Positions 12,530 to 28,938 of a stretch of DNA of 64,000 bases are shown here, one piece after another. Numbering within the stretch: position 1 is the stretch's first letter; the number at the start of each line of letters is the position of its first letter. Under the pieces are notes generated by a model. The model was not told where the DNA came from. It searched no databases and saw only the letters and a program-made list of their open reading frames with translations. Made by a program: the position numbers and the translations under genes. This DNA is from Thermoanaerobaculia bacterium (GTDB lineage Bacteria; Acidobacteriota; Thermoanaerobaculia; Multivoradales; J023): assembly GCA_030431255.1 (NCBI GenBank), contig JAUIJL010000006.1, positions 281,850 to 345,849 on the forward strand, written 5' to 3'.

Positions 12530-14359
12530 TCATTGGACCCCGCCGGCGGCCTGGACGATCGTGTTGTATGCGTTGCGTTGTAAGGTTCCACCGGCGTGGG
12601 TTTCGATGCTGCCGTCGGGCCAGATCACCTCGACTTTTACCACCTCGGCGGTTTCCCCCGGACCTAGGCCCACTGAGATCCTGGGATCGTTGGAGCCGGC
12701 GAAGCTGCCGTCCCGTCGAGCTCGACGCCAAAGGTTTCGCCCATCGCTCAGCTCCAACCGGAGGCGGGCGCCGACCGCGGGGCGTCGGCCATCAGCGTTT
12801 TCGGTCTCCAGCCTGAACCCTATCCAGGGTGTGTCTTGACCCACTCGATTGATCAATACCCGGGCGGGACCATTGTTGTTGACCACCACCAGATCCGCAT
12901 CTCCATCGTTGTCCAAATCTCCCACCGCCGCGCCCCGGCTGACTTCTGAACGGGCCAACGCCTCACCCGCTGCCTCCGGCTTCACTTCCTCGAATTCTGT
13001 TTTCTGACCCCGGAGCACATTTCGAAAGAGCTGATTCGGATGGTGGTAGGGGAACGGGTCGCGGTCGAGCATCAATTGCTCGATCGCCTTGACGGCACCG
13101 TTGGCCACGAAGAGATCCAGCCGTCCGTCGTGGTCGAAGTCCAGCCAGGCCGTGCCGAAGGCCGTATAGAGCCGGCTCGGTGACGCCAAACCCACATCCA
13201 AGGTGCGGTCGATGAAGGTTCCCGATCCTTCGTTCTCGTAGAGGGTATTGGTTTCGCCGATGAGGTGGGTCATGAAGAGATCGTCGTCGCCGTCGCCGTC
13301 GAAATCACCGGCGTCGACACCCATCGAAGCCTCGGCTCGCCCACGGGCGTTGACCGCCGAGCCGGACAAAAGGGCCTCGTCCTCGAAAGTTCCGTCACCC
13401 CTCTGGATCCACATTTGGTTGTTCGCCTGGTCGTTGGCGACGTAGAGATCCAGCAGCCCATCGCCGTTGAGGTCCACGGCCACGGCGCCCAAAGCCGGGC
13501 CGAAACCCGATCGCAAACCCGCCGACCAGGTGACGTCCCCAAAGGTACCGTCACCCCGATTGTGGAAGAGTCGATCGGGAATCGGAGGATAGGCCGAAGG
13601 TCCACAATAGTCTTGGGCACCGGTGATGCCGCGACAGAGCTTGGGATTGTCGATCTCGGCGGCGATGTAGTTGCCGACGAAGAGGTCGTCGTGACCGTCA
13701 TGGTCGTAGTCCAAGAAAACCGCAGGAACGCTCCAGCGATCCTCCTCCAAACCCGCCTTTTCCGTCACATCCTCAAAGGTGCCGTCACCCCGGTTACGCC
13801 ACATTTGGTTGGCACCCATCTGGGTCAGATAGATGTCGGGCCAGCCGTCGGAGTCGATGTCTCCCACCGCCGCCCCCATGCCGTAACCCTCGCCGCGAAT
13901 GCCGCTCTGCTCGGTCACGTCGGTGAATCGCAGCTCGCCGGAATCGAGCTCGTTGCGGAAGATCCGATCGATCGCCTGGTCATGGAGCAGGGGAAATTGT
14001 GCGTCGCTCGGCGTTTTGCCGGGCTCCAGAACACTTCCTTGCACGAAGTAGACGTCCAAATCACCGTCGCGGTCATAGTCTAGGAGGGCGACCCCGGAGC
14101 CCGTCACCTCGGCCATGTAGAAACGTCCCGTGGCGCCGTTGAAATGGTGGAAGCTCAACCCGGCTTCGGCATTCAGCTCTTCAAACACCGGGCTCTGGAA
14201 CCTCGGAGCCGTTTCGCTGGTGCCGTTTTCTGGAGAGGGTGACCCCGAAGCGCGAGAGTCCGAGGGTGGTCCATCGGTGGTCCGTGGGGCACAGGCACAG
14301 AAGGCACATAGGACGATGCCCAATAGGGCGAGCCGTCCGGCATTCCGGGATCGGGTCAT
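12530..14359 (-). CDS. CRTAC1-like FG-GAP/ASPIC-UnbV repeat protein
   Basis: 609 residues. The N-terminal export signal is hydrophobic (LALLGIVLCAFCAC), possibly lipidated at Cys23, though the lipobox is imperfect. Repeated FG-GAP/VCBS units carry integrin-like calcium loops (DYDRDGDLDVY, DIDSDGWPDIY, DFDGDGDDDLF). The ASPIC/UnbV domain is at the C-terminus (GFRLETENADGRRPAVGARL ... VEVIWPDGS). The start overlaps the VWA gene stop as ATGA, and the TPR lipoprotein follows 22 bases downstream. It is closely related to the partial gene at 1-1683. It should fold as a calcium-binding beta-propeller on the cell surface or in the periplasm. Function not established. Confidence 0.92.
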   Translation of the reverse strand: MTRSRNAGRLALLGIVLCAFCACAPRTTDGPPSDSRASGSPSPENGTSETAPRFQSPVFEELNAEAGLSFHHFNGATGRFYMAEVTGSGVALLDYDRDGDLDVYFVQGSVLEPGKTPSDAQFPLLHDQAIDRIFRNELDSGELRFTDVTEQSGIRGEGYGMGAAVGDIDSDGWPDIYLTQMGANQMWRNRGDGTFEDVTEKAGLEEDRWSVPAVFLDYDHDGHDDLFVGNYIAAEIDNPKLCRGITGAQDYCGPSAYPPIPDRLFHNRGDGTFGDVTWSAGLRSGFGPALGAVAVDLNGDGLLDLYVANDQANNQMWIQRGDGTFEDEALLSGSAVNARGRAEASMGVDAGDFDGDGDDDLFMTHLIGETNTLYENEGSGTFIDRTLDVGLASPSRLYTAFGTAWLDFDHDGRLDLFVANGAVKAIEQLMLDRDPFPYHHPNQLFRNVLRGQKTEFEEVKPEAAGEALARSEVSRGAAVGDLDNDGDADLVVVNNNGPARVLINRVGQDTPWIGFRLETENADGRRPAVGARLRLELSDGRNLWRRARRDGSFAGSNDPRISVGLGPGETAEVVKVEVIWPDGSIETHAGGTLQRNAYNTIVQAAGGVQ

Positions 14360-16110
14360 TTACGATTTCCTATCCATGCGGTGCGAGTCACGAAGCTCTG
14401 ACGGCCCGTGATCTCGTCGCGCAAACCGACGGCCACTTTCTGCTTGCCCGGACGTACCTGAAGGGTCGCGCTATATACGTAATATTTCGTCCGCGCGATT
14501 TCGAGATCTTGCTCTGGAATTTGAATCGGAACCGTAGACATTTCCACTGGAGAGATCTCATTCTCTTCGTCCATCACCGCAAGGGACACCCGGACTTTGC
14601 CCGAATGCATTTGTTCACCGGGCAATAGCGTCACATTGCCGATGGGAATTCGGACCTCGATCGGCAAGAAGGTGTTGCGTTTTCCATCGACTACCGGATC
14701 CATAAACTCGATGCCGGCGTTCAAAGGATTGGATCCTTGATCGAAAACCAGCGCGGCCAGTGTGCCTTCGCTGATCCGTGTCTCCAGGCTCTTATCCCGG
14801 TAGCCGTCGCGATGGCGCACCTCCAGGCCCTTCTTGCGGACCTTGACCTCGATCCGATGAAAGCGACCGTCGCCGCTGTGAGAGGGAAGGTAGCCGAGGG
14901 AATAGTAGGAGCTGAAATCCTTGGCCATGGCGTCCAACGCGCCGGCGAAGTTGTTGGTGTTGATCGACGCCAAACCACCGGTATCGTCCGCCAGCATCAG
15001 CAGCGTCTCCTGACGATTCAGCTGGTAGGTGAAGTCCACCTCGATGGTCGACACACCTCCGGAACGCTCGGCGGAGAGCGAGGAGTGGCTGCGTAGGCCC
15101 GCGGCTTCCAAGGTGTAGAAAGTCACCCGATTGGCGTTGGCGTGAGAGATCAACACCTGATAGCGTCGCCGCGCGTCGTAACGGTTCGCCTGGAGCGAGA
15201 TTCCACCCCGATTTTGCAGGTTCGGATGCTCCTGGGCCGCCAGCTGGAAGAGATCCTCGCCCGCTCGCATCTCAAGGCCGTCGCTGACGTAGAGCAAGGC
15301 TTTCCGGCCCGGCAAACCCGCCACTGTGCTGACCATCTCCCGCATACCTCGAATCGACATCTCGACATCGTTGTAGACCGACTTGGCATAGAAATCCGCA
15401 TGGGATTCCGCTTCGAGAGAATCGTCCGTCCGCAGAATTCGCTTGATGATGTTGTCGCGCTCCGTTTCTCGCTGAACCGTGAACGCCGACAAGTCCTCGA
15501 GCTCGTAGGTTTCCTCCACGATGTCGTTGACGTCCCGGGTAAACGGATGCCTGACTTTCAGCGAGCGCTCGAAGGTCACCAACATGACCTGGCTGTCCTC
15601 GGGCATCTTGGTGTTCAGGAAGGTGCGCACCTTGGCCATCACCTTGTTGCGGTTGAACGGACGGATATGCAGGTTGTCTATATAGACAATGAGGTGCAGA
15701 CGCTGATCTTCCGGTATCTCGGCCACGGGCTCGGGTGTTTCCGGAGTCTCCACTTGGGGGCGCTCGAGGGTGCTCAGCTGCTCCCGAGCCGGGCGCCCGT
15801 CGGCCACTGCATAGAAATTCGTAACTCGAACCGGACGGCCATCTTCGAAGAGCTCGAAGTCGTCGACGGTCAGGCCGTGAATTCTATTTCCTTCTTTGTC
15901 GCTGACGTAGACATCCACATTGACCAGATTCACATCCTGAGCTTCGATGAAGAATCCGGCCTCCGAGGGGTCTTGCTCGCCCGTATCGGCCTGGGCAAAT
16001 GCCGGCAAAGCTGCTGATAGCCACATCCACGGGAGCAAAATCGTCGTAGATATAAGCAATCGTAGGGAGTGTCTCGCAGCCGGCCGTGACGAGCCGTATC
16101 GATCCAACAT
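14356..16110 (-). CDS. VWFA-related acidobacterial-type exported protein
   Basis: 584 residues with a signal peptide (LLISTTILLPWMWLSAALPAFA, cleavage near residue 40). The next ~60 residues form the characteristic N-terminal part (VDVYVSDKEGNRIHGLTVDDFELFEDGRPV). A von Willebrand factor A-like fold runs from about 120 to 440. The MIDAS motif DxSxS is absent; in its place is IDNLHIRPFNRN, matched by VDNAHVAPQNRN in the paralogue at 23676. The C-terminal ~150 residues form a beta-rich domain shared by both. An AGGAGA lies before the ATG. It is the first gene of the VWA - CRTAC1-like - TPR operon, divergent from the TonB-dependent receptor. Probably a protein-binding envelope component; function unknown. 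Confidence 0.9.
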   Translation of the reverse strand: MLDRYGSSRPAARHSLRLLISTTILLPWMWLSAALPAFAQADTGEQDPSEAGFFIEAQDVNLVNVDVYVSDKEGNRIHGLTVDDFELFEDGRPVRVTNFYAVADGRPAREQLSTLERPQVETPETPEPVAEIPEDQRLHLIVYIDNLHIRPFNRNKVMAKVRTFLNTKMPEDSQVMLVTFERSLKVRHPFTRDVNDIVEETYELEDLSAFTVQRETERDNIIKRILRTDDSLEAESHADFYAKSVYNDVEMSIRGMREMVSTVAGLPGRKALLYVSDGLEMRAGEDLFQLAAQEHPNLQNRGGISLQANRYDARRRYQVLISHANANRVTFYTLEAAGLRSHSSLSAERSGGVSTIEVDFTYQLNRQETLLMLADDTGGLASINTNNFAGALDAMAKDFSSYYSLGYLPSHSGDGRFHRIEVKVRKKGLEVRHRDGYRDKSLETRISEGTLAALVFDQGSNPLNAGIEFMDPVVDGKRNTFLPIEVRIPIGNVTLLPGEQMHSGKVRVSLAVMDEENEISPVEMSTVPIQIPEQDLEIARTKYYVYSATLQVRPGKQKVAVGLRDEITGRQSFVTRTAWIGNRK

Positions 16111-16668
16111 GATGGGTCTCCTGAAATTCGGTGCTCGCGGGCAGAGGGCCGCGACAAGCGGCCGAGAGTATATCGAAGGAGCTCAGCGTCGACCGGAGGA
16201 TGGGGCGACCGGCACATCAGAGCTTACGGAACGCTCGAGCCTACGGAAGCGCAGACGGGGCTATGTGGGCTCACAAGACGGATTGGCGGGACGAAGGACC
16301 GCCTAAAAGCCCAAAAAATCGATATGATCATCGGTTCAGGTGCACCGCGAACAACGGCTTATGGGGTCCCTACCGACCGCCTCCGGATTCAGTCACCTGT
16401 TGCGAGCTCAACGGATTGATTCAAAATTTTCGATTCAGGCTTATTCCGCAGCCGTTGAGTTTTCAAAGTGATCTCGATAACTACTGATTTAATTAAGCTT
16501 ATGGCGTAAACCGCCATCACCCGGCACCTTGGTCCGATTCTTGCTGTTACTAAGGTTGACGGGTTCTTATCACCGTTCATCTCGGCTCTGAGGAGCCGGA
16601 CCGAAACGGTGTTCAGCAGAAACCGCTTCCTTGAGGAGAAGAGGAAGCAATCACAGAGGAGTCTTCGA
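16111..16668. other. Divergent intergenic region, VWA operon / TonB receptor
   Basis: About 558 bases without a supportable gene. It must hold promoters for both the minus-strand VWA operon and the plus-strand receptor, and implies a long 5' leader for one of them. An AT-rich stretch occurs at about 16425-16500. A small hairpin (CGGCTC TGAG GAGCCG) lies about 80 bases before the receptor start. The SD AGAGGAG precedes ATG 16669. No confident -35/-10 pair was assigned. Confidence 0.45.
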
Positions 16669-19611
16669 ATGAGGACCAACCAAATCGCTCGGGTTTTGGG
16701 GATCGGGCTGGCGGCAGTGCTGCTGCTGGCGCCCACTCTCTTTGCCCAGCTACCGACCGGTACGGCTACCGGTCGCGTTATCGATGCCGACGGCGGCGGC
16801 CTTCCCGGCGTCACCGTAACGGCCAGCTCGGATGCCCTTCAGGGTAGCCGTGTTGCCGTCACCGGCACCAATGGCGACTTTAAGCTCGCTTTCCTGCCGC
16901 CCGGTACCTACAAGCTCACCTATGAGCTCGAAGGTTTCGCCACCGCTGTTCAAGAAGTGGTGATCTCCGGCTCGCAGACCCAAAACGTCAACGTCTCCAT
17001 GAAAGTGGCTGAGGTTGTTGAAGAAATCGTCGTCACCTCCGCTCTCGAGGTTATCTCCGAGGGAACGGGTGCCAAGACCACTTACGGTATCGACGAAATC
17101 GAGGATCTTCCGGTCGCCCGTAACATCCGTTCGGCTACCCTCCTGACCCCCGGCGTCGCCGCCACCGGTCCGAAGCAGTCGAGCAGCCGTTCGCCTGCCC
17201 TGGCCATCGCCGGCGCCATGTCGTTCGAGAGCCTCTACCTGGTCAACGGTGTGGTGGTCAACGAGAACATCCGTGGACAATCCTTGGATCTGTTCATTGA
17301 GGACGCGATCCAAGAGTTCACCACCATCACCAATGGTGCCTCGGCCGAGTACGGTCGTTTCACCGGTGGTGTGATCAACGTGCTGACCAAATCCGGTGGT
17401 AACGAGTTCAGCGGCTCGATCCGTCGCTCCTACACCCAGGACGATTGGACGGACCCGACCGAGTTCTTCGACGAAGAGCTCGACGACACCCTGAACGAGA
17501 CCGACGAGCTGACCTTGGGCGGCCCGTTCTGGAAGGACCACATCTGGTTCTTCGCCGCTTTCCGCGACATCGGTGAGAGCTCCTCCACCCGTACCACGGC
17601 TGCTCCCACGAGCATCTCCTACAACCGGGTGTCCACTCAGGAGCGTCAAGAGGGCAAGCTGACCCTCACGCCGCACCCGAGTCACTCTCTGGTCGCCAAC
17701 TACCTCGAGATCGAGCAGACCACGACCAACAGCTCGTTCGGTAACGTGCTCGACTTGGCCAGCCTCTCGGATCGTAACGATCCGCAAGAGCTGACCGCGG
17801 CTCACTACACCGGTATCTTCGGCTCCAACTTCTTCGTTGAAGCTCAGTACTCGGAGCGTGAGTTCTTGCTCGGCGACGGTAGCGGCTCTCAGTTCCGCGA
17901 CCTGATCGGCGGCACCTTGATCCGTCACTCCCTGGTCAACACCCGGTACCACACCGGTACCTTCTGCGGTGTTTGCCCGGCGGAGCTTCGCAACAACGAC
18001 AACACCCTGGCCAAGGCGTCTTACTTCTTGACCACGGATAGCGGCTCGCACGACATCGTCTTCGGTTACGATTCGTTCACCGACATTCGTCAATCCGACA
18101 ACCATCAATCCGGCTCCGGTTTCCAACTCTGGCACGGTCCGGATCCAATCATCCAGGGCAACGAGATCTTCCCCGTCGTGGGCAACGGTCAGTTCGACTG
18201 GGTGGTTTGGTTCCCGATTCTCGAAGGCTCGAAGGGCACGGATCTCGTGACCAACTCGGCCTATGTCAACGACACTTGGCAGATCAACGAGAAGATGAGC
18301 CTCAGCCTCGGCTTGCGCTACGACGAAAACGATGGTCGTGACGCCGAAGGCAAGCTGATTGCCGATGACAACCGCATCAGCCCTCGTTTGGGCCTGAACT
18401 ACGACCTCAAGGGCGACGGTGATTGGATCATCAACGCTACCGCTGGTCGTTACGTGGCTGCCATCAACAACGGCGCCGCCGACCAGACCTCGGCTGCCGG
18501 TACCCCGGCGACCTTCGTCTCCTTCTACGGCGGTCCGGAGATCAACACCAACGGTGCGACCCAGAACCAGGATCAAGCTCTGCAAACCGTCTTTGATTGG
18601 TGGTTCGCCAACGGCGGAACCGACGATCCGAGCGGTGACCTGAGCAACCTGCCGGGTCTCTTCTACGCCAACATTCCGGGCGCCACCGCGGTGATCGAAA
18701 ACACGTTGGCTTCGCCTTACGTGGACGAGCTCACCTTTGGTGTCAGCAAGCGACTGGGCAACAAAGGTATCGTGCGCGCGGATCTCGTATTCCGCGAGTT
18801 CGGTGATTTCTATGCCCAGGAAACCTCTTTGCGCACCGGTCAGGTCACGATTCCCTCCGGTACTTTCGATCGCACGGTCATTTACAACGAAAACGACTTG
18901 CTGAACCGTGAGTACATGGGTCTCTTGACCAACTTCCGTTATCGCGCTACCGATCGTCTGCGGATCAACGGTAACTACACGTTGTCCAAGTCGGAAGGTA
19001 ACTTCAACGGTGAAACCGCCGGCTCCGGCTCCATCAACGGTAACCCCCTGGCTTATCCGGAGTACCGCGAGGCCCGCTGGAACTTCCCCGAGGGTGACCT
19101 CAGCACCGACCAACGTCACAACCTGCGGTTGTGGGCGATCTACGACATCTTCAACACGGATCATCACTCGCTCAACACGAGTGTCTTGCTCAACTACGCT
19201 TCGGGCACGCCCTACAGTGGGGTAGCGAGCATCAATCCGACTCCTTTCGTCAACAACCCGGGTTATTTGACGCCCACCACTTCGGTCAACTACTTCGTAA
19301 CCGAACGTGGCGCGTTCAAAACCGACGACATCACCCGCGTGGATGTGTCGCTCAACTACTCGTTCAAGTGGAACCTCTGGAACCGGGACTTCGAAGTCTT
19401 CATCCAGCCGGAGATGCTGAACGTATTTGACGAACAGTCCTTCACCCGGGTCGACCAAACCGTCAACAATGAGGCAGCGTTCAATCCGTTCACCACCACC
19501 CCGGTGGAGGGCGTGAACTACACGTTCGACGACGACTTTGGCCAGCCTCTGACCCCTGAGGACATCACCTTGCCGCGGACCTACCGCTTCTCGGTCGGTT
19601 TCCGCTTCTGA
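16669..19611 (+). CDS. TonB-dependent receptor with carboxypeptidase-regulatory-like domain
   Basis: 980 residues from ATG 16669, chosen because AGAGGAG lies 7-8 bases upstream and a signal peptide starts there (cleavage LFA|Q near residue 26). An earlier in-frame start at 16609 would place 20 residues before the signal. Residues ~30-115 form a CarboxypepD_reg-like beta domain (GRVIDADGGGLPGVTVTA). A TonB plug follows (SAEYGRFTGGVINVLTKSGG), then a large outer-membrane barrel ending in the aromatic YRFSVGFRF. The protein should import an unknown ligand across the outer membrane using TonB energy. Codon use is much more biased than in neighbours (CGT, GGT, AAC, ACC, GAC), suggesting high expression. 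A strong terminator follows. Confidence 0.93.
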   Translation: MRTNQIARVLGIGLAAVLLLAPTLFAQLPTGTATGRVIDADGGGLPGVTVTASSDALQGSRVAVTGTNGDFKLAFLPPGTYKLTYELEGFATAVQEVVISGSQTQNVNVSMKVAEVVEEIVVTSALEVISEGTGAKTTYGIDEIEDLPVARNIRSATLLTPGVAATGPKQSSSRSPALAIAGAMSFESLYLVNGVVVNENIRGQSLDLFIEDAIQEFTTITNGASAEYGRFTGGVINVLTKSGGNEFSGSIRRSYTQDDWTDPTEFFDEELDDTLNETDELTLGGPFWKDHIWFFAAFRDIGESSSTRTTAAPTSISYNRVSTQERQEGKLTLTPHPSHSLVANYLEIEQTTTNSSFGNVLDLASLSDRNDPQELTAAHYTGIFGSNFFVEAQYSEREFLLGDGSGSQFRDLIGGTLIRHSLVNTRYHTGTFCGVCPAELRNNDNTLAKASYFLTTDSGSHDIVFGYDSFTDIRQSDNHQSGSGFQLWHGPDPIIQGNEIFPVVGNGQFDWVVWFPILEGSKGTDLVTNSAYVNDTWQINEKMSLSLGLRYDENDGRDAEGKLIADDNRISPRLGLNYDLKGDGDWIINATAGRYVAAINNGAADQTSAAGTPATFVSFYGGPEINTNGATQNQDQALQTVFDWWFANGGTDDPSGDLSNLPGLFYANIPGATAVIENTLASPYVDELTFGVSKRLGNKGIVRADLVFREFGDFYAQETSLRTGQVTIPSGTFDRTVIYNENDLLNREYMGLLTNFRYRATDRLRINGNYTLSKSEGNFNGETAGSGSINGNPLAYPEYREARWNFPEGDLSTDQRHNLRLWAIYDIFNTDHHSLNTSVLLNYASGTPYSGVASINPTPFVNNPGYLTPTTSVNYFVTERGAFKTDDITRVDVSLNYSFKWNLWNRDFEVFIQPEMLNVFDEQSFTRVDQTVNNEAAFNPFTTTPVEGVNYTFDDDFGQPLTPEDITLPRTYRFSVGFRF

Positions 19612-19644
19612 TACTGGTCAGAGAGAACCCTTCTTAGGAAGGTG

Positions 19645-19672
19645 AAAACCCCGGCTTCGGCCGGGGTTTTTT
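19645..19672. terminator. Bidirectional intrinsic terminator
   Basis: An 11-bp stem, AAAACCCCGGC / GCCGGGGTTTT, closes on a TTCG tetraloop and ends in TTTTTT on the plus strand. The A-run on the other side also gives Ts on the minus strand. It sits between the convergent TonB receptor and SGNH/TPR genes and probably serves both. Confidence 0.92.
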
Positions 19673-19704
19673 GTTGCCCCGGGTTCTCTTCTCGACCCCG
19701 GTTC

Positions 19705-22098
19705 TTATTGAGCCAGGGCCCGCTGCAATCGGGCCAGCGCGGTTTTGAATCGTGGGTTCTCGGGCTCCAGCTCGAGCGCCGTTTGTAGACGCTCGAGGGA
19801 CTCCTCGAGACGCCCCCCGTTGCCGTAGATCAAGGCCAGGTTGAAGTGCGCCTCGGCGAAGCTCGGGGATATCTCGATGGCCTTCAAGAGCTCGCCCTCC
19901 GCTTCTTCCAGCCGATTCTGGCGGCCGAAAAGCACCCCGAGATCGTTGTGAATGCGGGCGACCACGGCGCGCGACGCCGCGTCGGAGGTGGCTTTGGGAG
20001 CGCCTTTGAGCTGATTGAGAGCCTGCTCATAGAGCGTTTGTGCTTCCGCAAAGCGTCCTTCTCGGCTCTCGGCTTGAGCCTTGTGGACGGTGATCAGAGC
20101 ATGCTGTCGACCGAGACCCGGATGGGTCCATCCGCCGGCCGACGCCTTCTCGAGCATCTGCTCGGCCGCCGCCGAATCACCCAGCTCCCGTAGGGCGATC
20201 GCCAGGTTGAAGCTCGCTTCCGGATAGTCGGGTTTCAGCTCGATCGCCTTCCGCAACGCGCTCGCGGAACGCTGCCACTGACCCACCTCCGCCAAGACGA
20301 CTCCGAGATTGAATTGGGATTCCGCAACGGCCGGCCCGAGCTCGACCGCCCGCTGATGGGCTTGCAGCGCATCTCCGATTCGTCCCATTTTTTGGTACAC
20401 GATCCCAAGATTTCGAAACACCTCGGGCTCGTCGTAAAGCTGGCTCGCGGCCCTTTCCAAGGGCTCGAGGGCTTCGTCGAATTTTCCCGCCCAACCCAAT
20501 ACCTTGGCCAAATTCAAATCCCGGCGCGCGTAATAGGCTTCGTCTAGGGTCGACAGATGCTCGACGATCAGAGCCTCGCGGGTGGTGTCCTCCAGCGGAC
20601 GAAGGCTTACGATACCGAGCCCTGAAAGGGTGCCGAGGACTTCCTGCGCGATCCACTGGTGAGCTTCGAGGGTGGGGTGGACGTGGTCCAACAACACTTC
20701 GTTGCCGGGAATACCGTGGCCGAGCCGGGCTTGTAGCCGCCGCTCTATGATTTCCGGCAGATCCACCCATGGGGTTGACGTCTCCGATGCCACTTCTCGG
20801 ATGATTCGATCGGTCGCTTCGAGCGCTCGCAGGGGACACACGTCGAGGTCTTTGGCACGAGCAAACGCCTCGGCAGCGAGCTTCTCTCGACCGGAAGCCA
20901 GCAGGGCTCGGCCAAGTCGATACGCGGACTCGGCAAATAGGGGATCCAATGCCGTTGCGGCCCGGAGCTCCTCGATGGCAGCTTCAGCGACTGAGTCAGT
21001 CGCGGCACTGTCGGCCGCGGCGCTGTCGGTCGTGGAGCTGTCGGTCGTGGCATCTGCTGCCTCGAGACCCTTGAGCAGCTCAACACCTCGTTCGAGATGG
21101 CGGTCATGTTGCTCGATCACGGCGTCCGTCAGGCCGTCTGAGCGTTGCGACTTGAAGGGTGAGAAGTCTTTGAGGTTCGAGATCGGCCGGACTAGAACGA
21201 CCGGAATGTCGTGGGCTTCGGCCAGCGCGATCATTTGCCGAAGGTTGTGCTCGAAGTGGGTGAGCACTGAGGCTTGGAGCTCGAGATCTCGCTCGAATAG
21301 GTCCAGGCCGTTCCATACATCGAGCTTGGCTTCGACCTCGCTCGCCAGGAGATCGCGACCAACCGCGGGTTCTCCGCTGTCGCCGGCTTTCCCGTTGTCG
21401 GCAGAGGGCTGCTGCGACGCGCCGGACACCGGGGTCTCTGGGGTCAAACCCAGCAGGCTCCGGGCAAGGTTCAAGAACCTGAGCCCATTGGACCAAACCC
21501 GTAGCTCGCGACGCCAGATCGGCTCGTGGATGATGTCGGAGTAGGTTCGTTCTTCGAGAAATTCGTTGTGGCCGGTGTAAATGACGAATACGTCCGGCTG
21601 ATATCGAACCAGCTCCTTCATCAGCACCGTGATCCGATAGCTGGCATAGGAGATACCCCCCGCGTTGATCACCTCAAGGGGCCGATCGCTCACCGCATTG
21701 CCGAATACCTCCAGCCATTTCGGAAAGGCGACCCGCCAATCGTAGGGCCGACCCGCAGTGGTGGAACCGCCGAGGGCAAAGATCCTCAAGGCCTCCGGAT
21801 CTTTATCCCCACCGAAGCTTTGATCGTTGAAGAATCCGAGTTTTTGTGGGCGTGTGCGAAAGACCTTTTTCCCGGATATTTGAACAGGCTCGAAGAGATC
21901 GTTGCCTTCCACAAACCCCACATAGGGATCCTCGACGGCATAGGGATCGCCGATTCCGAAGACCTCGAGAAGGCCTTCGACGACCACCAAACCCACCAAA
22001 AACAGCGCAAAACCGAAGAAGACCAGCAGGGCTTTTTGGGCCCTGCTGGTCTCGATCGAATCCCTTACGGCCGGGCTTCGGGAGTCCTGATCGATCAC
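19705..22098 (-). CDS. Membrane-anchored SGNH-hydrolase-like domain with C-terminal TPRs
   Basis: 797 residues. One N-terminal transmembrane segment (about 22-45) would leave the rest outside the cytoplasm. Residues ~100-480 look like an SGNH/GDSL-type hydrolase: ALGGSTTAG with candidate nucleophile Ser112, INAGGISYASYR, YTGHNEF (block III-like), and DHVHPTLEAH supplying the Asp/His pair. A TPR array follows from about 490 to the end. A low-complexity Thr/Asp/Ser/Ala segment (TDSSTTDSAAADSAATDS) interrupts the hydrolase part. The start overlaps the stop of the upstream TPR gene (ATGA). Such proteins may deacylate or acetyl-modify envelope glycans, but the substrate is unknown. Confidence 0.85.
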   Translation of the reverse strand: MIDQDSRSPAVRDSIETSRAQKALLVFFGFALFLVGLVVVEGLLEVFGIGDPYAVEDPYVGFVEGNDLFEPVQISGKKVFRTRPQKLGFFNDQSFGGDKDPEALRIFALGGSTTAGRPYDWRVAFPKWLEVFGNAVSDRPLEVINAGGISYASYRITVLMKELVRYQPDVFVIYTGHNEFLEERTYSDIIHEPIWRRELRVWSNGLRFLNLARSLLGLTPETPVSGASQQPSADNGKAGDSGEPAVGRDLLASEVEAKLDVWNGLDLFERDLELQASVLTHFEHNLRQMIALAEAHDIPVVLVRPISNLKDFSPFKSQRSDGLTDAVIEQHDRHLERGVELLKGLEAADATTDSSTTDSAAADSAATDSVAEAAIEELRAATALDPLFAESAYRLGRALLASGREKLAAEAFARAKDLDVCPLRALEATDRIIREVASETSTPWVDLPEIIERRLQARLGHGIPGNEVLLDHVHPTLEAHQWIAQEVLGTLSGLGIVSLRPLEDTTREALIVEHLSTLDEAYYARRDLNLAKVLGWAGKFDEALEPLERAASQLYDEPEVFRNLGIVYQKMGRIGDALQAHQRAVELGPAVAESQFNLGVVLAEVGQWQRSASALRKAIELKPDYPEASFNLAIALRELGDSAAAEQMLEKASAGGWTHPGLGRQHALITVHKAQAESREGRFAEAQTLYEQALNQLKGAPKATSDAASRAVVARIHNDLGVLFGRQNRLEEAEGELLKAIEISPSFAEAHFNLALIYGNGGRLEESLERLQTALELEPENPRFKTALARLQRALAQ

Positions 22099-23366
22099 AG
22101 AAAGCTCATCATTTCCTTGGCGGTCGCCGCATTCTCATGGTCGGGCATCAAGGCGATGAAGCGCTCGAAATGGGATTTAGCATCGGCGTTCTTGCCCATG
22201 TTGACGTAACAAAGACCCAGCAGGTAATGGGTCATTCCATGGTCGGGATCGATGTCTAAAATCTGCTTGAACGAGCTGACCGCGGAATCCATATCACCGC
22301 CGTTGAATTGCTCTTGGCCGCCCTTGAATAGACCCGAGATCATCGCCGTGGGATCCGCGTCGGCGACGGCTTGGAAGGCCTCGTCGGCCTTGGCCGTGTC
22401 TCCGAGGCCGCGGTAGGCGTCGAGCCTGACTTTCTTCATGGTCAGGTCCTCCGGATCGACCGCAATCACCTTCTCAGCGAATTCAGCGGCTTTTTGGAAT
22501 TCCTGGCTATCGAGATAGACCAATGCCAGGAGGCGTACCGCTTGGTTCAGCTCCGGGTCCAAGGAATAGGCTTTCTCCAGCCGCTCCCGAGCCCGTTCCA
22601 GGTCACCCATGCGCATGGCTTCGGCGCCCTCGTTATAGATCAAAGGTACAGCGTCTGCGCTGGATTCCAGCTGAGAGATCTTCTCGAAGACCTCGTCCGC
22701 AGCTTCCTGATCACCCAGACCGGAGAGGGCTTCGTAGAGCATCCTATAGGCGCGACCGTTTCCCGGCTCCTTCGCGATCACGAATTCCGCGCTCGCTTTA
22801 GCGTTCTGGAAATCCTTCTCATCCAAATAGATCGCCGCCAGGGCCGAATGGGCCTGATAGAGCTCGGGATCCATTTCATAGGCCTTGAGGAAACTGGCTT
22901 TGGCGGTCGCCAAGTCTTCAGCTTTGAGCGCGGTCACGCCTTCATTGAAGGTTTCCTGGGCGGGGGTCAGGGGAATCTCGCGGGTTCCACCTTCGCCGCT
23001 CGGCACCGACTTACGCGTATTGGTCTTATAAAGAGTGTAGGTCTGGTAGCTGACCGCGCCGACAGTCGGCTTGAGCGACGTCGAAGCTGGATCGTAACCC
23101 TCCAAAGAGAGGCTGAGTGCATAGGCCAGGCTGCTGTCACGGAAGACAAGAGTCGTCTTGCCTTTCTTGTTGGTGGTTCCTTCGATCACCAAACCCGTGT
23201 GTGGGTGGGTCGCCGAAATCTTGACGTCGGGTAACGGATTATCGGCCTCGTCTTTGACCGTGAAGCCGACCCGAGAGACCGACTGCGCGGATACAGAGGC
23301 GGCAAGCAAACAAAGAAGCGTTGTCACCGCGGTCGACACGAGGCCGATATGTAATCGTCTTTTCAT
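22095..23366 (-). CDS. Exported TPR protein with N-terminal carboxypeptidase-regulatory-like domain
   Basis: I place the start at ATG 23366, with SD AGGAGG 5-6 bases before it, giving 423 residues; a longer frame from 23510 lacks a signal sequence at its beginning. The signal peptide ends VSA|Q near residue 27. Residues ~30-115 form a beta-sandwich-like domain (FTVKDEADNPLPDVKISATHP) like that at the N-terminus of the TonB receptor. TPR units fill the remainder (AYEMDPELYQAHSALAAIYL). It is the first gene of a two-gene operon with the SGNH/TPR protein, overlapping it by ATGA. Probably a periplasmic scaffold; function unknown. Confidence 0.87.
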   Translation of the reverse strand: MKRRLHIGLVSTAVTTLLCLLAASVSAQSVSRVGFTVKDEADNPLPDVKISATHPHTGLVIEGTTNKKGKTTLVFRDSSLAYALSLSLEGYDPASTSLKPTVGAVSYQTYTLYKTNTRKSVPSGEGGTREIPLTPAQETFNEGVTALKAEDLATAKASFLKAYEMDPELYQAHSALAAIYLDEKDFQNAKASAEFVIAKEPGNGRAYRMLYEALSGLGDQEAADEVFEKISQLESSADAVPLIYNEGAEAMRMGDLERARERLEKAYSLDPELNQAVRLLALVYLDSQEFQKAAEFAEKVIAVDPEDLTMKKVRLDAYRGLGDTAKADEAFQAVADADPTAMISGLFKGGQEQFNGGDMDSAVSSFKQILDIDPDHGMTHYLLGLCYVNMGKNADAKSHFERFIALMPDHENAATAKEMMSFL

Positions 23367-23675
23367 GATTTCCTCCTGAAACGGGGATGGAGAACGGGGT
23401 GATTGCTCAAGCGGCTTACCGCTCGGCCAGGAGCTGATTGACCTGGATCCCCAAAGGATGCCCCGCTGGCCTATTATCCCATGGACGGCACGATGGTTCA
23501 GCACCTTCAATGACTCGGCTCTCCCTTGCGTCCGACGATAGGACGCATGTTGGTGACAGATCGCTACGAGCTGGGGTCGAGGAGCATGCTGTTGATACTA
23601 GGTATGCCTTAGGATATCGAGGCCGATCTTTTTTCTTCGGGACCTATTTTCGAATCCTGTCTGAAGGAGACATCC
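23367..23675. other. Divergent intergenic region, TPR operon / VWA-TPR-VWA operon
   Basis: 309 bases with no supportable gene. It should hold both promoters. TTGATA at about 23592, followed by an AT-rich GGATAT at about 23612, is a possible plus-strand promoter, but the hexamers are weak. AAGGAGA precedes ATG 23676 and AGGAGG precedes the minus-strand start. Confidence 0.4.
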
Positions 23676-25454
23676 ATGCAGAAGCTCGCGCTGATCCCGC
23701 TCACCCTCCTATATTTATACGGCTCGAGCCTGGCCGCCGATTCATCGGACAGCAATCTCTTCTTCGATACGGTCGATGTTCAAGTCGTCAACATCGAAGC
23801 GGTGGTGCTCGATAAAGAAGGCCAACCGGTGCTCGGCTTGGGGCCGGACGACTTTGAGCTATTCGAGAACGGCGAGCCGGTGGAGATCTCCAACTTCTTC
23901 GCGGTCGAAGGCTCCACCCGCACGGCGGATCCGGACCCGGGATCGACCCTAGCGCCGGCCAGGGAACCGGAAACCCAAAATCTCAATCTGGTGGTCGTGG
24001 TCGACAATGCCCATGTGGCGCCCCAGAATCGCAATCAGATCTTCGCCAATCTACGCGACTTCGTGGATCGCAGCCTCAAACCCGACGATCAAATCCTGAT
24101 CGTCAGTGTGGGTGACAGCCTGAAGCTGGAAACGGAATTCACCCGAGATCCGGAAACGGTCGGCCGAGTGCTCGACCGTCTGGAAAAGGAAACCGGACCC
24201 AGCACCCGCACCCATGCCGCCCTGCAGCAGCTGTTGCGTAACATCCAATCCGCTCGTTTGGTGGCTGCATCCCAGGGATTTCGCGACAACAGCGCCGAGC
24301 TGGAGCGGGTTCGGCTCGAAGCCACCGACTATGCGACCCAAATACGTGCTTTTTCCGAAGAGCGGATGAAGAGATCCAAAGCGACTCTGGAAGCCATGGC
24401 CCGATTCGTCAGCTCTTTGGCCGGTATGAAGGGCAGAAAAGCGCTGCTGTACATCAGCGACGGTATGTCGATGAACCCCGCCGATGCCCTGATGCAAGCC
24501 TGGCAGGACAAGTTCGTCAATTGGATGATCCAAAACGGCTTCAGCGACGATCAGCTCAATATGGCCACCATCAGCTCGGCGAATTACTCCTTAACCAAGG
24601 AGCTGGACCAATTCGTTCAACATGCCGCGGCCACGAAAGTCGCCATCTATCCGATTTCTCCGGGTAGCCGTCTCGCTCGATCCGTTGGCTCCGCCGAATC
24701 CCAAGGCAGCTTTGCCACCAACGGCTCCGGCAGCGCTTCGAGATTGGTCGGATCCTTGGAGCAATTCTCGTTGGATGAATCGCTGCTGCGCATGGCCGAC
24801 GAAACCGGCGGCACGGCCTTCACTCGAAGCTCCAACATCGAAGGGTTGTTGGAGCAAGTTCGCACCGATTTCTCGACTTTCTACTCTCTCGGCTACCAGC
24901 CGAATGTCATCAGCAACGAACGCCGAGACTTGGAAATCAAGGTCAAAAACGAGGATTGGACGGTTCGGTACGGCAAGAGCGTGCGGGAAAAGGATCCCCT
25001 GGACAACCTTCAAGACAGGATATTGTCGTCGCTTTTCTACGACCTGGGAGACAATCCCCTCCATATCGCCATGACCTCGATGAAGCAGGAGCCGACCAGC
25101 GCAGGCACCTTCCAAGTTTCGATCATGGTGCAAATACCGTTTGAGAAGATTCTCCTGCTCCCGGAGGAGAACCACCATTCCGGCCGCTTGACCCTTTTCG
25201 TGGTCGTTCGCGATGAAAACAACCAGAATCTCTCTCCGTTCCGGCGGGTGGAAATTCCCCTCGAGATTCCCAACGATCAAATTCTCCAAGTGATGGCCCA
25301 AAGCGCCGGTTATCCCCTGGAGCTGAATATGCAACCCGGGCCTAAGCGCATCGCCATCGGCATTCGGGATCGTCTCGCACAGCTGGATTCCACCACTCAT
25401 CTCGATCTCAATGTCGGCAGCGGAACCGATACGGCCCAAGTCAACAGCCCATGA
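23676..25454 (+). CDS. VWFA-related acidobacterial-type exported protein
   Basis: 592 residues with a signal peptide (LIPLTLLYLYGSSLA). Same architecture as the protein at 14356-16110: an N-terminal VEAVVLDKEGQPVLGLGPDDFELFENGEPV-type beta unit, a VWA-like fold, and a C-terminal beta domain (RLTLFVVVRDENN ... PKRIAIGIRD). The MIDAS DxSxS is replaced by VDNAHVAPQNRN, the same replacement as in its paralogue. AAGGAGA lies before the ATG. It is the first gene of a three-gene operon in which each junction is a 4-base ATGA overlap. Probably an envelope protein-interaction module; ligand unknown. Confidence 0.9.
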   Translation: MQKLALIPLTLLYLYGSSLAADSSDSNLFFDTVDVQVVNIEAVVLDKEGQPVLGLGPDDFELFENGEPVEISNFFAVEGSTRTADPDPGSTLAPAREPETQNLNLVVVVDNAHVAPQNRNQIFANLRDFVDRSLKPDDQILIVSVGDSLKLETEFTRDPETVGRVLDRLEKETGPSTRTHAALQQLLRNIQSARLVAASQGFRDNSAELERVRLEATDYATQIRAFSEERMKRSKATLEAMARFVSSLAGMKGRKALLYISDGMSMNPADALMQAWQDKFVNWMIQNGFSDDQLNMATISSANYSLTKELDQFVQHAAATKVAIYPISPGSRLARSVGSAESQGSFATNGSGSASRLVGSLEQFSLDESLLRMADETGGTAFTRSSNIEGLLEQVRTDFSTFYSLGYQPNVISNERRDLEIKVKNEDWTVRYGKSVREKDPLDNLQDRILSSLFYDLGDNPLHIAMTSMKQEPTSAGTFQVSIMVQIPFEKILLLPEENHHSGRLTLFVVVRDENNQNLSPFRRVEIPLEIPNDQILQVMAQSAGYPLELNMQPGPKRIAIGIRDRLAQLDSTTHLDLNVGSGTDTAQVNSP

Positions 25455-27673
25455 ATCGATATCTCGGCCTCGTCGTTTTTGTTCCGTTCCTTCTTTTTCT
25501 AAGCTCCGCGACTCCGGCCCAAGAGGTTCCCGATCCGTTTGGGCCGACCACCTTACAAGCTCGGGCCCTGAGGGGTCTGACCGGTGAAATCGCTACCTTG
25601 ATCCTAAAGGCCGACCCCGGTGGGGAATTGGCCATGGAAGCCTTGGCCGTACCCCTGCTACAAAGCGCGGAGGTCGGAGACGAGCCGGGCACCGAGAAAC
25701 AACGGGTGGCTGTCGTCGTGGAAATCGACGGCACCAGTTTCTTGGAGATGAATCAAAGCGATCTCACTCGGCTCGAGATCTATGTCTACGCCCTTCGCGA
25801 CCAAGGTTTCGAAATCGGTGACTATCGTGCGGAGGTGGTCGCTGTGGATGTCGCAAACCTCGGTGAGGTGGTGTGGCAAAGCGGTCTCAAATATTTCGGC
25901 GAGCTCGCGCTCGAGCCGGGCACCTATCGTCTGAGGGCATTGATCCGAAATTTTCAGAGCAAAGCCGCAGGTTTGCGCGAGATCCCTCTGGTTGTTCCAG
26001 CGGCATCGGACGGCCCACAGCTCTCGACACCCTTGCTGACCGATCCTGAATTCCGCGAGCCTTGGGTTCCCATTCGTCCGTGGAGCAAGGACTTAATCGC
26101 CGGCCTGGTCGACGAGCCCCTGGAGGGGTTGAAGACGCGGACCCGGAAACCTTATCCATTCAGCATGGGCGAGCAGGTCATCCGCCCCGCGGCCAGGAGA
26201 GTTCTGGTGCCGGGCCATGCTTCGACCGTCTACCTCCACGGACGGTTCCCGGCCTCAGACAACGGCTTCAGGGTTCAGCTCATGGATGCCTCTATCGAGC
26301 CGGCCAAGCTCCTGGGCCACCTGCCCTTGAGCTTCGTGGACCGAGTCGAGCAGGGGGATCGCGCTTTTGTGGAAGCGACTTTCATGCCACCCGAGGACCT
26401 GCCAGCGGGTCTCGTCGAGCTGAGGGTGGAGTATCCAATCGGCCACCAAGCAGCCAATCAAGGTGCGGCCGGCCAAGGTGCGGCCGGCCAAGGTGCGGCC
26501 GGATCGCGAGCCATGTCTCCTCCGGTAGCGGTCCACCTCATGGACTCGAGCGTCCGTGAGCAAAACCTCCTGTGGTCGGATCTCCGATGGCGGGGGACCG
26601 GAGAAGCACCGTCGGAACGCCCTGCCTCGGCTCGAGTGGAAAACACCCCGAGCCGCGAAAAAGGAGGGCGGAAGGTCGGCAAGCTGACCCGTCAGTACGA
26701 GGAAATCTTGGCCGGAGTCGACCAGCTGGGCACCACCACGACCATGAGCGACTTGTTGGACTTCGAAACCAGAACTCTCAACGAGGGCTCTCGCAAAGCG
26801 GCCGGGCTCCTGCAGACCGCTGAATACAAGCTCGCTGAATCGCTGTCCGAATCCGATCCCGAAAGCCTGGTTCCACTGATCCAGCTCCATCAAGACCTCT
26901 ATCTCGCTTATCGCGGTCGACGAATGTTCTCCCTCGGCACCCATAGCCGGGTGCTCATGGAACGGATCGCGGAGCTTTACGCTGAGAAGGGATCTGGGCA
27001 GGGCTCGAAGATCGTCGCCGCTCGGGCTTTGACCAGTCTTGCCGGTTATCTGCAGGCCGGTGGTTTGGCGTCCACCAGCCAGCGACTCTACCGTCGCGCC
27101 CTCGAGCTGGACCCCACGTCGAAAACAGCGATGTTGGCCTTGGCCTGTGGTTACGAACGGCTGGGTGCGTATGACCGGGCCAAGGAGACTCTGCAGCAGC
27201 TCACCTCTCAATACCCGAAGATGTCCGAGGCCTGGCTTCGATTGGCCATGAGCACCACGCGCTTGGGGCAGCGGGTCCAATCCCGGAAAATTTTGGAGCA
27301 GGTCGTCGAGTTGGACGGACCCCATTGGATTCGTTCTCTAGCTTACGAAGAGCTGGCCCGGATTCATCTCTTTTTGGACCAAACCGAATCCGCTCTGGCT
27401 CTCCTGGAGCAGGTCCAAGAGCCCAGCGAAGGAACCCTCTTCTTAATGGCATTTCTCTACGACCGCTCGGGTAAGCCCAATCGATCCCTAGAAATGCTCA
27501 ATCAGGTACAAGCCAAATCCGGTCGAGCACCCTCTCCACGCAAGAAATACGACGGCTGGCCGGAGCAGGCCCTCGCCGAGACTCGAAAACATCTCCTGGA
27601 AGCTGCCGGAATCCGCCTCTCCAGGCTGCAGGATGCCGTTGCGGGATCCCGGAAGCCCGGAGGTAAATCATGA
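25451..27673 (+). CDS. Exported protein with TPRs, middle gene of VWA operon
   Basis: 740 residues. The signal peptide is LGLVVFVPFLLFLSSATPAQ. The N-terminal ~380 residues contain beta-rich modules I cannot name (RVAVVVEIDGTSFLEMNQ; LEIYVYALRDQGFEIGDYRAEV) that may be VWFA-protein-associated. From about 490 to the end are TPR units (LYRRALELDPTSKTAMLALACGYERLG). A Gln-Gly-Ala-Ala-Gly triplet encoded by a 15-bp tandem repeat lies near residues 337-351. It overlaps both neighbours by ATGA, so all three proteins are probably made in fixed proportion and may form one complex. Function unknown. Confidence 0.82.
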   Translation: MNRYLGLVVFVPFLLFLSSATPAQEVPDPFGPTTLQARALRGLTGEIATLILKADPGGELAMEALAVPLLQSAEVGDEPGTEKQRVAVVVEIDGTSFLEMNQSDLTRLEIYVYALRDQGFEIGDYRAEVVAVDVANLGEVVWQSGLKYFGELALEPGTYRLRALIRNFQSKAAGLREIPLVVPAASDGPQLSTPLLTDPEFREPWVPIRPWSKDLIAGLVDEPLEGLKTRTRKPYPFSMGEQVIRPAARRVLVPGHASTVYLHGRFPASDNGFRVQLMDASIEPAKLLGHLPLSFVDRVEQGDRAFVEATFMPPEDLPAGLVELRVEYPIGHQAANQGAAGQGAAGQGAAGSRAMSPPVAVHLMDSSVREQNLLWSDLRWRGTGEAPSERPASARVENTPSREKGGRKVGKLTRQYEEILAGVDQLGTTTTMSDLLDFETRTLNEGSRKAAGLLQTAEYKLAESLSESDPESLVPLIQLHQDLYLAYRGRRMFSLGTHSRVLMERIAELYAEKGSGQGSKIVAARALTSLAGYLQAGGLASTSQRLYRRALELDPTSKTAMLALACGYERLGAYDRAKETLQQLTSQYPKMSEAWLRLAMSTTRLGQRVQSRKILEQVVELDGPHWIRSLAYEELARIHLFLDQTESALALLEQVQEPSEGTLFLMAFLYDRSGKPNRSLEMLNQVQAKSGRAPSPRKKYDGWPEQALAETRKHLLEAAGIRLSRLQDAVAGSRKPGGKS
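26459..26503 (+). repeat. 15-bp tandem repeat, three copies, in frame
   Basis: Three consecutive copies of CAAGGTGCGGCCGGC (the last ending in A) encode QGAAG three times. Copy-number change by slippage would add or remove five residues without breaking the frame of the TPR protein. Confidence 0.9.
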
Positions 27674-28938
27674 GCTCTCATCTTTCGTCCGGCGTTTACT
27701 CGCGGCGAGAGCCGGCCCGGGATCGATCCCGTCGGGTGGTTTCATTCAGGGTCGTCCCCATCTGGGCCGTGTGGATATCTCTTGCCCTCATTGTGTCGGC
27801 TCTCGACGTGTTTACCGTCAAGGTATTCGCCGAGCCCCCGACGGTGACCATCACCTCGCCCCCGGCCGGCCAGCCGGCGTTCGGAGAGGTCGAGCTGAGC
27901 GCGGACATCGTGGAGGGGGAGGCGACGATCGTTCGTTTTCTTTTCGATGGCCGGGTGGTGGGGGAGCTTGAAGCTCCTCCTTACCGAGCCACCGTCGACG
28001 CAGGCCAGGAGAACCGGCCTCATCGCTTCGAGGTTCAAGCCATCTCGGCGGACGGCGAGGTGGGCACGGCGCTGATGGTGACACCGGCCATTCGGATCGA
28101 CGACGAAATCGAGGCCGAGCTCCAGCAGCTCTATATCACCGTGACCCGCCAAGATCAGCGCATCCTCAATCTCGAGCAAGAGGACTTTCGGATCTATGAC
28201 GATCAATTCCGCCAGCAGATTGTGACGTTTGCCCGCGGGGATGTTCGGCTCACCGCCGCCTTGTTGATCGACTCGAGCACGAGCATGAAAGGGCGAAGGT
28301 TGCGCTTCGCCCTGCGCGGAGCGACCGCATTCCTAAACGGCTTGCGAGAAATCGACGATGCCAGTCTGTTGCTTTTCGCCGATCGGCTCCTTCATTCGAC
28401 ACCCTTCTCCAACGATGTCGGAATCTTGACCGAAGGGCTCAGCAAGGCCAATGCCGACGGCGGCACCTCGTTGAACGATCATTTGTATCTGGCACTGAAA
28501 AAGCTGGAGAGTCAGCAGGGCCGGCGGGTGGTGATCGTGCTCTCCGACGGCATCGACAGCCACAGCTCTTTGCGCATGGCCGACGTCCATTGGCTCGCCC
28601 GCCGCAGCCGCGCCCTCATCTATTGGATTCGAATCAATCCCGGCGGCGGCGATCCCACCAAACGGCTCTCGGCTTGGAAGAATCCTGAGACCTACAAAGA
28701 GGAGTATCGGCTGCTGACGCGAACCGTGGAGTCCAGCGGCGGCCGCATCGTGGATTTAGACAACCTCCAAGCGGCCGAGCAGGCCTTCCAAGGTATTTTG
28801 GACGAGCTTCGCGAGCAATACGTCATCGGCTACTACCCGTCGATTTCGAGAAACGACGGCAGCTGGCACGATGTGAAGGTCGAGGTGGACGGCGGAAATC
28901 TCAATATCCGAGCCCAAAAAGGGTACGTCGACTACTGA
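27670..28938 (+). CDS. VWFA protein with intact MIDAS and N-terminal Ig-like domain
   Basis: 422 residues. A signal anchor or uncleaved signal lies at about 27-53 (VVPIWAVWISLALIVSALDVF). An Ig-like beta domain follows at about 55-145 (VTITSPPAGQPAFGEVELSADIV and VRFLFDGRVVGELEAPPY). The next VWFA-related segment (LYITVTRQDQRILNLEQEDF) leads into a VWA domain with a complete MIDAS start, DSSTSMKG, then GGTSLNDHL and VLSDGIDSHSS. It therefore probably binds a divalent cation and a protein ligand, unlike the first VWA protein of the operon. The start overlaps the previous stop by ATGA. Third gene of the operon. Confidence 0.9.
   Translation: MSSHLSSGVYSRREPARDRSRRVVSFRVVPIWAVWISLALIVSALDVFTVKVFAEPPTVTITSPPAGQPAFGEVELSADIVEGEATIVRFLFDGRVVGELEAPPYRATVDAGQENRPHRFEVQAISADGEVGTALMVTPAIRIDDEIEAELQQLYITVTRQDQRILNLEQEDFRIYDDQFRQQIVTFARGDVRLTAALLIDSSTSMKGRRLRFALRGATAFLNGLREIDDASLLLFADRLLHSTPFSNDVGILTEGLSKANADGGTSLNDHLYLALKKLESQQGRRVVIVLSDGIDSHSSLRMADVHWLARRSRALIYWIRINPGGGDPTKRLSAWKNPETYKEEYRLLTRTVESSGGRIVDLDNLQAAEQAFQGILDELREQYVIGYYPSISRNDGSWHDVKVEVDGGNLNIRAQKGYVDY

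What the first reader, a model, noticed from the sequence alone, without database searches (positions are those of the whole stretch)
14356..25454. Two VWA paralogues share a specific replacement of the MIDAS motif
Where MIDAS DxSxS is expected, the protein at 14356 reads IDNLHIRPFNRN and that at 23676 reads VDNAHVAPQNRN. The shared (I/V)DN-x-H-(I/V)-x-P-x-NRN pattern is too similar for random decay and suggests a subfamily with a new ligand or metal site. The third VWA (27670) keeps DSSTSMKG.
Basis: partly seen in the sequence, partly recalled or inferred. Interest (0 to 1): 0.6.

Follow-up and report, generated by a model that had tools for sequence, protein, structure and literature searches.

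The report
MIDAS-less branch of acidobacterial VWA proteins
Two exported acidobacterial proteins have the adhesion-type VWA fold but without the usual metal-binding motif; the sequence that replaces it belongs to a large, already catalogued protein family in these bacteria rather than being a special feature of these two genes.

Summary
At the MIDAS position, 14356-16110(-) reads DNLHIRPFNRN and 23676-25454(+) reads DNAHVAPQNRN. No DxSxS lies elsewhere in either VWA domain, and 27670 keeps DSSTSMKG. All three are TIGR03436 (acidobact_VWFA) proteins.

The exact motif occurs in just these two of 218 rows (216 distinct). The looser DN-x-H..P..R is not a clade: His alternates with Asn, Phe and Tyr among close relatives, needing 6 changes on the tree, at least 5 forced by well-supported branches. 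What is conserved is D0...P6..R9: D in 191 of 192 and R in 178 of 192 long-form rows (190 distinct).

The main finding is a two-way split of the family. A compact form keeps DxSxS (27/27) and the MIDAS Thr loop (25/27). A long form has extra helical sequence before beta4, no Thr loop (0/191), and no DxSxS in 183/191. AlphaFold2 gives a confident VWA fold plus an Ig-like C-terminal domain. The nearest solved folds include TFIIH p34, a MIDAS-less VWA protein.

Most likely these are exported, metal-independent scaffolds encoded beside FG-GAP/ASPIC, TPR, TonB-receptor and other VWA genes. A rewired metal site is less likely but not excluded.

The parts
14356..16110 (-). Protein 1, exported TIGR03436 VWA protein, long form without MIDAS (584 aa)
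   Evidence: TIGR03436 209.8 bits; AF2 model mean pLDDT 89.8, VWA fold
15646..15678 (-). DNLHIRPFNRN, replacement of DxSxS at the end of beta1 (D145) running into helix alpha1 (from P151; R154 in its first turn)
   Evidence: secondary structure of the model; D145 and R154 invariant in 70 rows
15319..15498 (-). Extra helical stretch before beta4 (helices 210-227 and 231-263) that takes the place of the MIDAS Thr loop
   Evidence: Thr-loop pattern in 0 of 191 long rows, 25 of 27 compact rows
15268..15285 (-). beta4 end SDGLEM; Asp at the fifth MIDAS position still present here
   Evidence: Asp in 127 of 192 long rows
14359..14802 (-). C-terminal Ig/FnIII-like beta-sandwich domain (residues 437-584)
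   Evidence: AF2 pLDDT 95.2; pdb_via best Z 10.0, rmsd 2.2 over 97 residues, a domain of a GH2 enzyme
23676..25454 (+). Protein 2, second long-form TIGR03436 VWA protein without MIDAS (592 aa)
   Evidence: TIGR03436 179.9 bits
24003..24035 (+). DNAHVAPQNRN, replacement of DxSxS in protein 2
24456..24473 (+). beta4 end SDGMSM of protein 2
25451..27673 (+). TPR protein between the two VWA genes; ATGA overlaps on both sides
   Evidence: relatives next to protein-2 relatives in L209, L213, L214, L216
27670..28938 (+). Protein 3, compact-form TIGR03436 VWA protein with complete MIDAS (DSSTSMKG, GGTSL, SDGI), overlapping run of genes with protein 2
12530..14359 (-). FG-GAP / ASPIC-UnbV protein, ATGA overlap with protein 1
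   Evidence: ASPIC gene near 6 of 10 protein-1-group members including the window
10402..12507 (-). TPR protein downstream in the same run of genes
   Evidence: kept in L102, L104/L233, L230, L232
16609..19611 (+). TonB-dependent receptor-like outer-membrane protein, divergent from protein 1
   Evidence: 906-bit relative in the same cluster in L233

Best explanation
Proteins 1 and 2 are members of the long, MIDAS-less form of the acidobacterial VWA family TIGR03436. Shown here: the beta1 Asp is kept, the two MIDAS serines and the Thr loop are gone, extra helical sequence sits before beta4, and an Arg nine residues after the Asp is nearly invariant. Inferred: the domain does not use a divalent cation for ligand binding. 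The Arg in the first turn of alpha1 probably pairs with the retained beta1 Asp (and, where present, the beta4 Asp) and neutralises the former metal site. The proteins would then act in the cell envelope as metal-independent protein-protein scaffolds, paired with neighbouring FG-GAP/ASPIC, TPR and TonB-receptor proteins or with a second VWA protein. His at D+3 is one of several interchangeable residues (Asn most often), not a defining ligand.
For: Membership: TIGR03436 209.8 and 179.9 bits. Split: DxSxS in 27 of 27 compact domains; no DxSxS in 183 of 191 long ones; Thr loop 25 of 27 against 0 of 191. The 5 compact rows of the 86-row tree form one side of a branch (97*). D145 and R154 invariant in 70 aligned rows; R9 in 178 of 192 long rows. 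Of the 14 rows without D plus R9, 5 carry R/K at +1 to +4, against 7 of 178 with it (Fisher p 0.0006, not corrected for kinship). VWA fold: mean pLDDT 89.8, pdb_via Z 14.5-16.4, top rows TFIIH p34/Tfb4. PMC4094531 (passages read) says p34 keeps the first Asp, loses the two serines through a helical insertion, has Ser for the last Asp and probably binds no metal. Neighbours: ATGA overlaps. ASPIC gene near 6 of 10 members of protein 1's group, the window counted. TPR25451 relatives next to protein-2 relatives in 4 of 19 other loci.
Against: N/H at +3 goes with Asp at beta4 (110 of 126 against 17 of 66), which could mean a surviving polar or metal site in that subgroup; independent pairs on the tree do not confirm it (7 pairs, median p 1). 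No experiment shows scaffolding. In this genome only one of 28 ASPIC matches (the window's own) lies directly beside a TIGR03436 match when the two lists are compared by eye, so the ASPIC link belongs to some orthologue groups only.
Confidence: 0.6

Rival explanations
1. The N/H subgroup keeps a rewired metal site: D0, N/D at +1, N/H at +3 and the beta4 Asp bind Ca2+, Mg2+ or Zn2+ in a new geometry.
For: D0 in 191 of 192; N or D at +1 in 148 of 192; N/H at +3 goes with beta4 Asp in 110 of 126 against 17 of 66 without N/H.
Against: A near-invariant Arg at +9 (178 of 192); no Thr loop (0 of 191); His in only 17 of 192; the association follows kinship and independent pairs give median p 1. p34 keeps the first Asp and its authors think it binds no metal (PMC4094531, passages read).
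Confidence: 0.2
2. The motif has no ligand role. D0-P6-R9 is a fold-stabilising helix cap and salt bridge, the real contact surface is the helical insert or the Ig-like domain, and tandem paralogues form heteromers through these.
For: Pro at +6 starts helix alpha1 in the model. Two kinds of long-form genes often stand in tandem: GGW-type directly upstream of DN-type flagged in 22 of 80 loci, 20 after leaving out L127 and L149, whose pattern hits look accidental. MIDAS and MIDAS-less genes adjoin in L123 and L227 and share the run of genes 23676-28938 in the window.
Against: No interface data; the conserved loop lies on the face that binds ligands in other VWA domains (established knowledge).
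Confidence: 0.15
3. Simple decay: the MIDAS was lost in two pseudo-functional copies.
For: The genome carries 44 TIGR03436 matches, so redundancy is possible.
Against: Open frames without stops; D0 and R9 kept across genera; relatives of protein 1 at 52% in the same family of organisms; conserved neighbours.
Confidence: 0.03

Closest known systems
TIGR03436 acidobact_VWFA (NCBIfam)
   Same: All three window proteins pass its cut-off; many paralogues per genome (44 matches here; 59 of 60 phylum genomes with a match, 46 over the cut-off).
   Different: The model lumps a compact MIDAS form and a long MIDAS-less form; proteins 1 and 2 are of the long form.
TFIIH p34/Tfb4 VWA domain (PDB 4wfq, 6nmi, 8ebu and others)
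   Same: VWA fold, Z 15.8-16.3 for these three; first Asp kept and the serines lost next to a structural insertion (PMC4094531, passages read).
   Different: Eukaryotic nuclear protein, 9-13% identity; its insertion lies directly after the first Asp, here the extra helices lie before beta4; p34 seems to keep the Thr.
Integrin alpha-I and ANTXR1/2 VWA domains
   Same: VWA fold, Z about 15; extracellular.
   Different: They bind ligands through an intact MIDAS (established knowledge); proteins 1 and 2 lack it.
von Willebrand factor type A and ASPIC/UnbV paralogues of Solibacter usitatus
   Same: PMC3174227 (search listing and passages read) lists von Willebrand type A and ASPIC UnbV among its paralogue groups and calls the VWA group too divergent for the saturation test.
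   Different: The passages seen say nothing on MIDAS or on adjacency of the two gene types.

Membership tests
TIGR03436 acidobact_VWFA | Score over the curated cut-off (81.25 bits) | tested here: met
   209.8, 179.9 and 135.9 bits for proteins 1, 2 and 3
VWA fold | Alternating beta/alpha fold of the VWA type | tested here: met
   Protein 1 model pLDDT 89.8; pdb_via Z up to 16.4 over 172 residues, rmsd 2.7. Protein 2 not modelled; by sequence only
MIDAS-type VWA domain | DxSxS after beta1 | tested here: not met
   D kept, both serines replaced in proteins 1 and 2; no DxSxS elsewhere in either domain
MIDAS-type VWA domain | Thr loop before beta4 | tested here: not met
   Pattern absent in all 191 long rows, proteins 1 and 2 included
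MIDAS-type VWA domain | Asp after beta4 | tested here: met
   SDG in both; Asp in 127 of 192 long rows
   9 H-type rows need 6 changes, at least 5 forced; 6 rows need 5, at least 4 forced, on the 187-row tree
   No coordinates and no binding data

The most novel reading that the evidence does not exclude
The long form of TIGR03436 is an envelope adhesion/scaffold module in which a conserved arginine replaces the metal ion of the VWA MIDAS. Multiplied into dozens of paralogues per genome, it builds heteromeric envelope complexes, in some lineages with an FG-GAP beta-propeller protein encoded by an overlapping gene: a bacterial pairing of propeller and VWA domain that recalls the integrin head, but without the cation.
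Probability: 0.12. Interest if true: 0.65.

Novelty: new variant of a known kind. Interest (0 to 1): 0.32.

Why it matters
A family annotated only as 'VWA domain-containing protein' is one of the large paralogue sets of Acidobacteriota and its function is unknown. Showing that it splits into a MIDAS form and a MIDAS-less form with its own D...P..R signature tells annotators not to assume metal-dependent adhesion. It also gives a small set of residues (D145, R154, the +3 position, the beta4 Asp) for a direct metal-binding and partner-binding test.

Tried and rejected
A two-paralogue subfamily defined by His: rejected by counts and trees. Asp at beta4 and N/H at +3 as a proven joint metal site: strong raw association, but independent pairs on starred branches (7) gave median p 1, so left as a rival. 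Compensating basic residue where R9 is missing: 5 of 14 against 7 of 178, but several of the 14 are sister rows, so weak. ASPIC next to VWA as a genome-wide rule: rejected for this genome, since only the window's own ASPIC gene lies directly beside a TIGR03436 match among 28 (lists compared by eye); it holds in protein 1's own group. A sequence search of the PDB with the 70-row profile gave one meaningless hit (E 0.39). Pfam recognised only 14 of 70 members as VWA_2 and 1 as VWA, so Pfam alone would miss most of the family.

Literature: ten searches. None of the listings showed TIGR03436, or MIDAS loss in acidobacterial VWA proteins. The library holds open-licence papers only, so this is not proof of absence. 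The description of TIGR03436 as an acidobacterial paralogue expansion is recalled; one search agrees with it.

Counting notes: the 218 rows are 187 distinct domains from L001-L178 plus 31 from L179-L207; two of the latter (L195, L206) repeat L061 and L079, so 216 are distinct, and the 192 long rows are 190 distinct. 'Long' means more than 105 residues from the beta1 Asp to the beta4 Ser. The DxSxS test was loose (D.[ST].[STG]); 8 of 191 long rows match it (such as DLSFS, DESST and DLTAG) with no Thr loop. In this genome 38 of 44 matches had a domain complete enough to align. The 192 long rows leave out the long rows from the phylum-wide other than L195 and L206. One of the two related-loci search patterns contained the letters DN, so the N share at +1 is inflated. 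Genomes and loci are not independent samples.
Full report
What was checked. The two proteins carry the motif exactly as reported, at the end of the first beta strand, where MIDAS DxSxS is expected. Protein 3 in the same window keeps DSSTSMKG, a GGTSL loop and SDGI. No other DxSxS lies in the VWA domains of proteins 1 and 2. All three pass the TIGR03436 cut-off. Pfam finds no domain in protein 1.

How wide the family is. The genome in which the window lies (10.19 Mb, 54 contigs) has 44 TIGR03436 matches. In an even sample of 60 genomes of the phylum, 59 have a match and 46 have one over the cut-off. Relatives of protein 1 at E 1e-20 or better are in 20 of 20 genomes searched among the near relatives, its own included; at E 1e-60 or better in 16 of 149 phylum genomes, mostly of the same order and class. 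The named contigs that encode close relatives are mostly labelled Acidobacteriota/Acidobacteria, Thermoanaerobaculia and Holophagales.

Two forms of the domain. Domains from the fetched loci were aligned (187 rows, 218, 236). The distance from the beta1 Asp to beta4 splits them cleanly. In the 218-row set, 27 compact rows (90-94 residues in those printed) all have DxSxS and 25 of 27 have the Thr-loop pattern; 191 long rows (over 105 residues) have the Thr loop in none and no DxSxS in 183. The 8 long rows that match the loose DxSxS regex have strings such as DLSFS or DESST without the Thr loop. In this genome 13 of 38 alignable domains are compact and 25 long. On the 187-row tree the long/compact label needs 2 changes; on the 86-row tree the 5 compact rows form one side of a branch with 97* support. 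Long rows from other classes (for example DAINTPFKDQ, DDLHTNFTN, DDLSLSFES) have different replacement strings, so the D...P..R signature marks the lineage of the window's class rather than the whole long form.

What is conserved in the replacement. In 192 long rows related to the window proteins (190 distinct), position 0 is Asp in 191; +1 is N 96, D 52, H 12, E 11; +3 is N 109, F 41, H 17, S 9; +6 is Pro in 149; +9 is Arg in 178; +10 is N in 96. In the 70-row alignment used for folding, D145 and R154 are invariant.

Is the motif a clade? Trees were built with the motif columns left out. On 187 rows, the six DN-x-H rows need 5 changes, at least 4 forced by starred branches. After adding relatives of protein 2, nine H-type rows among 86 (a chosen subset of the 236) need 6 changes, at least 5 forced. 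Protein 1 sits in a starred group of 9 (DNLF, DNVF, DNLY, DNLH), and protein 2 pairs with L209 DENNIDPRNRN (98*) in a starred group of 12 that includes DNLN, DNGN and DNLH. Even tandem copies in one genome switch between H and N (L221, L224 and L226). His has come and gone several times.

Structure. AlphaFold2 on protein 1 with 70 rows gives mean pLDDT 89.8 and pTM 0.86. Strand beta1 ends at D145; helix alpha1 starts at P151, so R154 lies in its first turn; two helices (210-227, 231-263) fill the stretch before beta4 (269-276). pdb_via ranks TFIIH p34/Tfb4 VWA domains first (Z up to 16.4, rmsd 2.7, 172 residues), then ANTXR, integrin I, Rpn10, Sec23 and INTS13/14 VWA domains at Z 14.5-15.3; rows within 1 Z are tied. 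A shared fold shows no function, but p34 is a useful precedent: it keeps the first Asp, loses the serines through an insertion, and its authors conclude that it probably binds no metal (PMC4094531, passages read). The C-terminal domain (residues 437-584, pLDDT 95.2) is an Ig/FnIII-like sandwich by modest matches (Z 10.0 to 8.8).

Neighbourhood. Genes overlap by ATGA at 14356-14359 (VWA to ASPIC), 25451-25454 (VWA to TPR) and 27670-27673 (TPR to VWA), which suggests co-translated genes. Of the 50 loci L099-L148, 8 hold an ASPIC relative. In protein 1's own ten-member group of the tree, the window counted, 6 have an ASPIC relative in the stretch read (window, L228, L230, L232, L233, L102) and 4 do not (L229, L231, L100, L123), with stretches of unequal length. 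L233 repeats the whole set (TonB receptor 906 bits, ASPIC 457, TPR 195, VWA 493). Relatives of TPR25451 lie beside protein-2 relatives in L209, L213, L214 and L216, 4 of 19 loci other than the window's own. MIDAS and MIDAS-less genes adjoin in L123 and L227, and share one run of overlapping genes in the window. GGW-type and DN-type long forms stand in tandem in 20 to 22 of 80 loci.

Mechanism. Shown: replacement, conservation, fold, and gene neighbours; export is read by eye from the hydrophobic N-termini. Inferred: the Arg pairs with the retained Asp and takes the place of the cation; the domain binds protein partners without metal. The alternative of a changed metal site in the N/H subgroup is left open, because N/H at +3 and Asp at beta4 go together (110 of 126 against 17 of 66), although the tree-aware test does not support it.

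Verdict. The stronger claim, a new subfamily with a new ligand or metal site defined by DN-H-P-NRN, fails its own test. What remains is a clear division of a known family into a MIDAS form and a MIDAS-less form with a conserved Asp-Arg signature, which I did not find described in ten searches of an open-licence library (listed under Tried and rejected).

Noticed in passing
   Followed up: partly
L101, L107, L111, L113, L116, L118-L121, L124, L125, L128, L129, L148 and others: A second MIDAS-less VWA type (D[DEN]xF..., beta4 GGW) stands directly upstream of the DN-type gene in about a quarter of the loci, suggesting a conserved two-protein unit.
   Followed up: partly
G000 (own genome): 28 ASPIC/UnbV matches and at least 150 FG-GAP_3 repeat matches in one genome: a second large paralogue set beside the VWA set.
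   Followed up: no
window 19705-22098 (-): GDSL-like lipase domain fused to TPR repeats; a relative stands next to protein-1 relatives in L099 and L105 and near one in L123.
   Followed up: no
window 22095-23510 (-): Carboxypeptidase-regulatory-like domain (below Pfam's cut-off) plus TPR repeats, divergent from protein 2.
   Followed up: no
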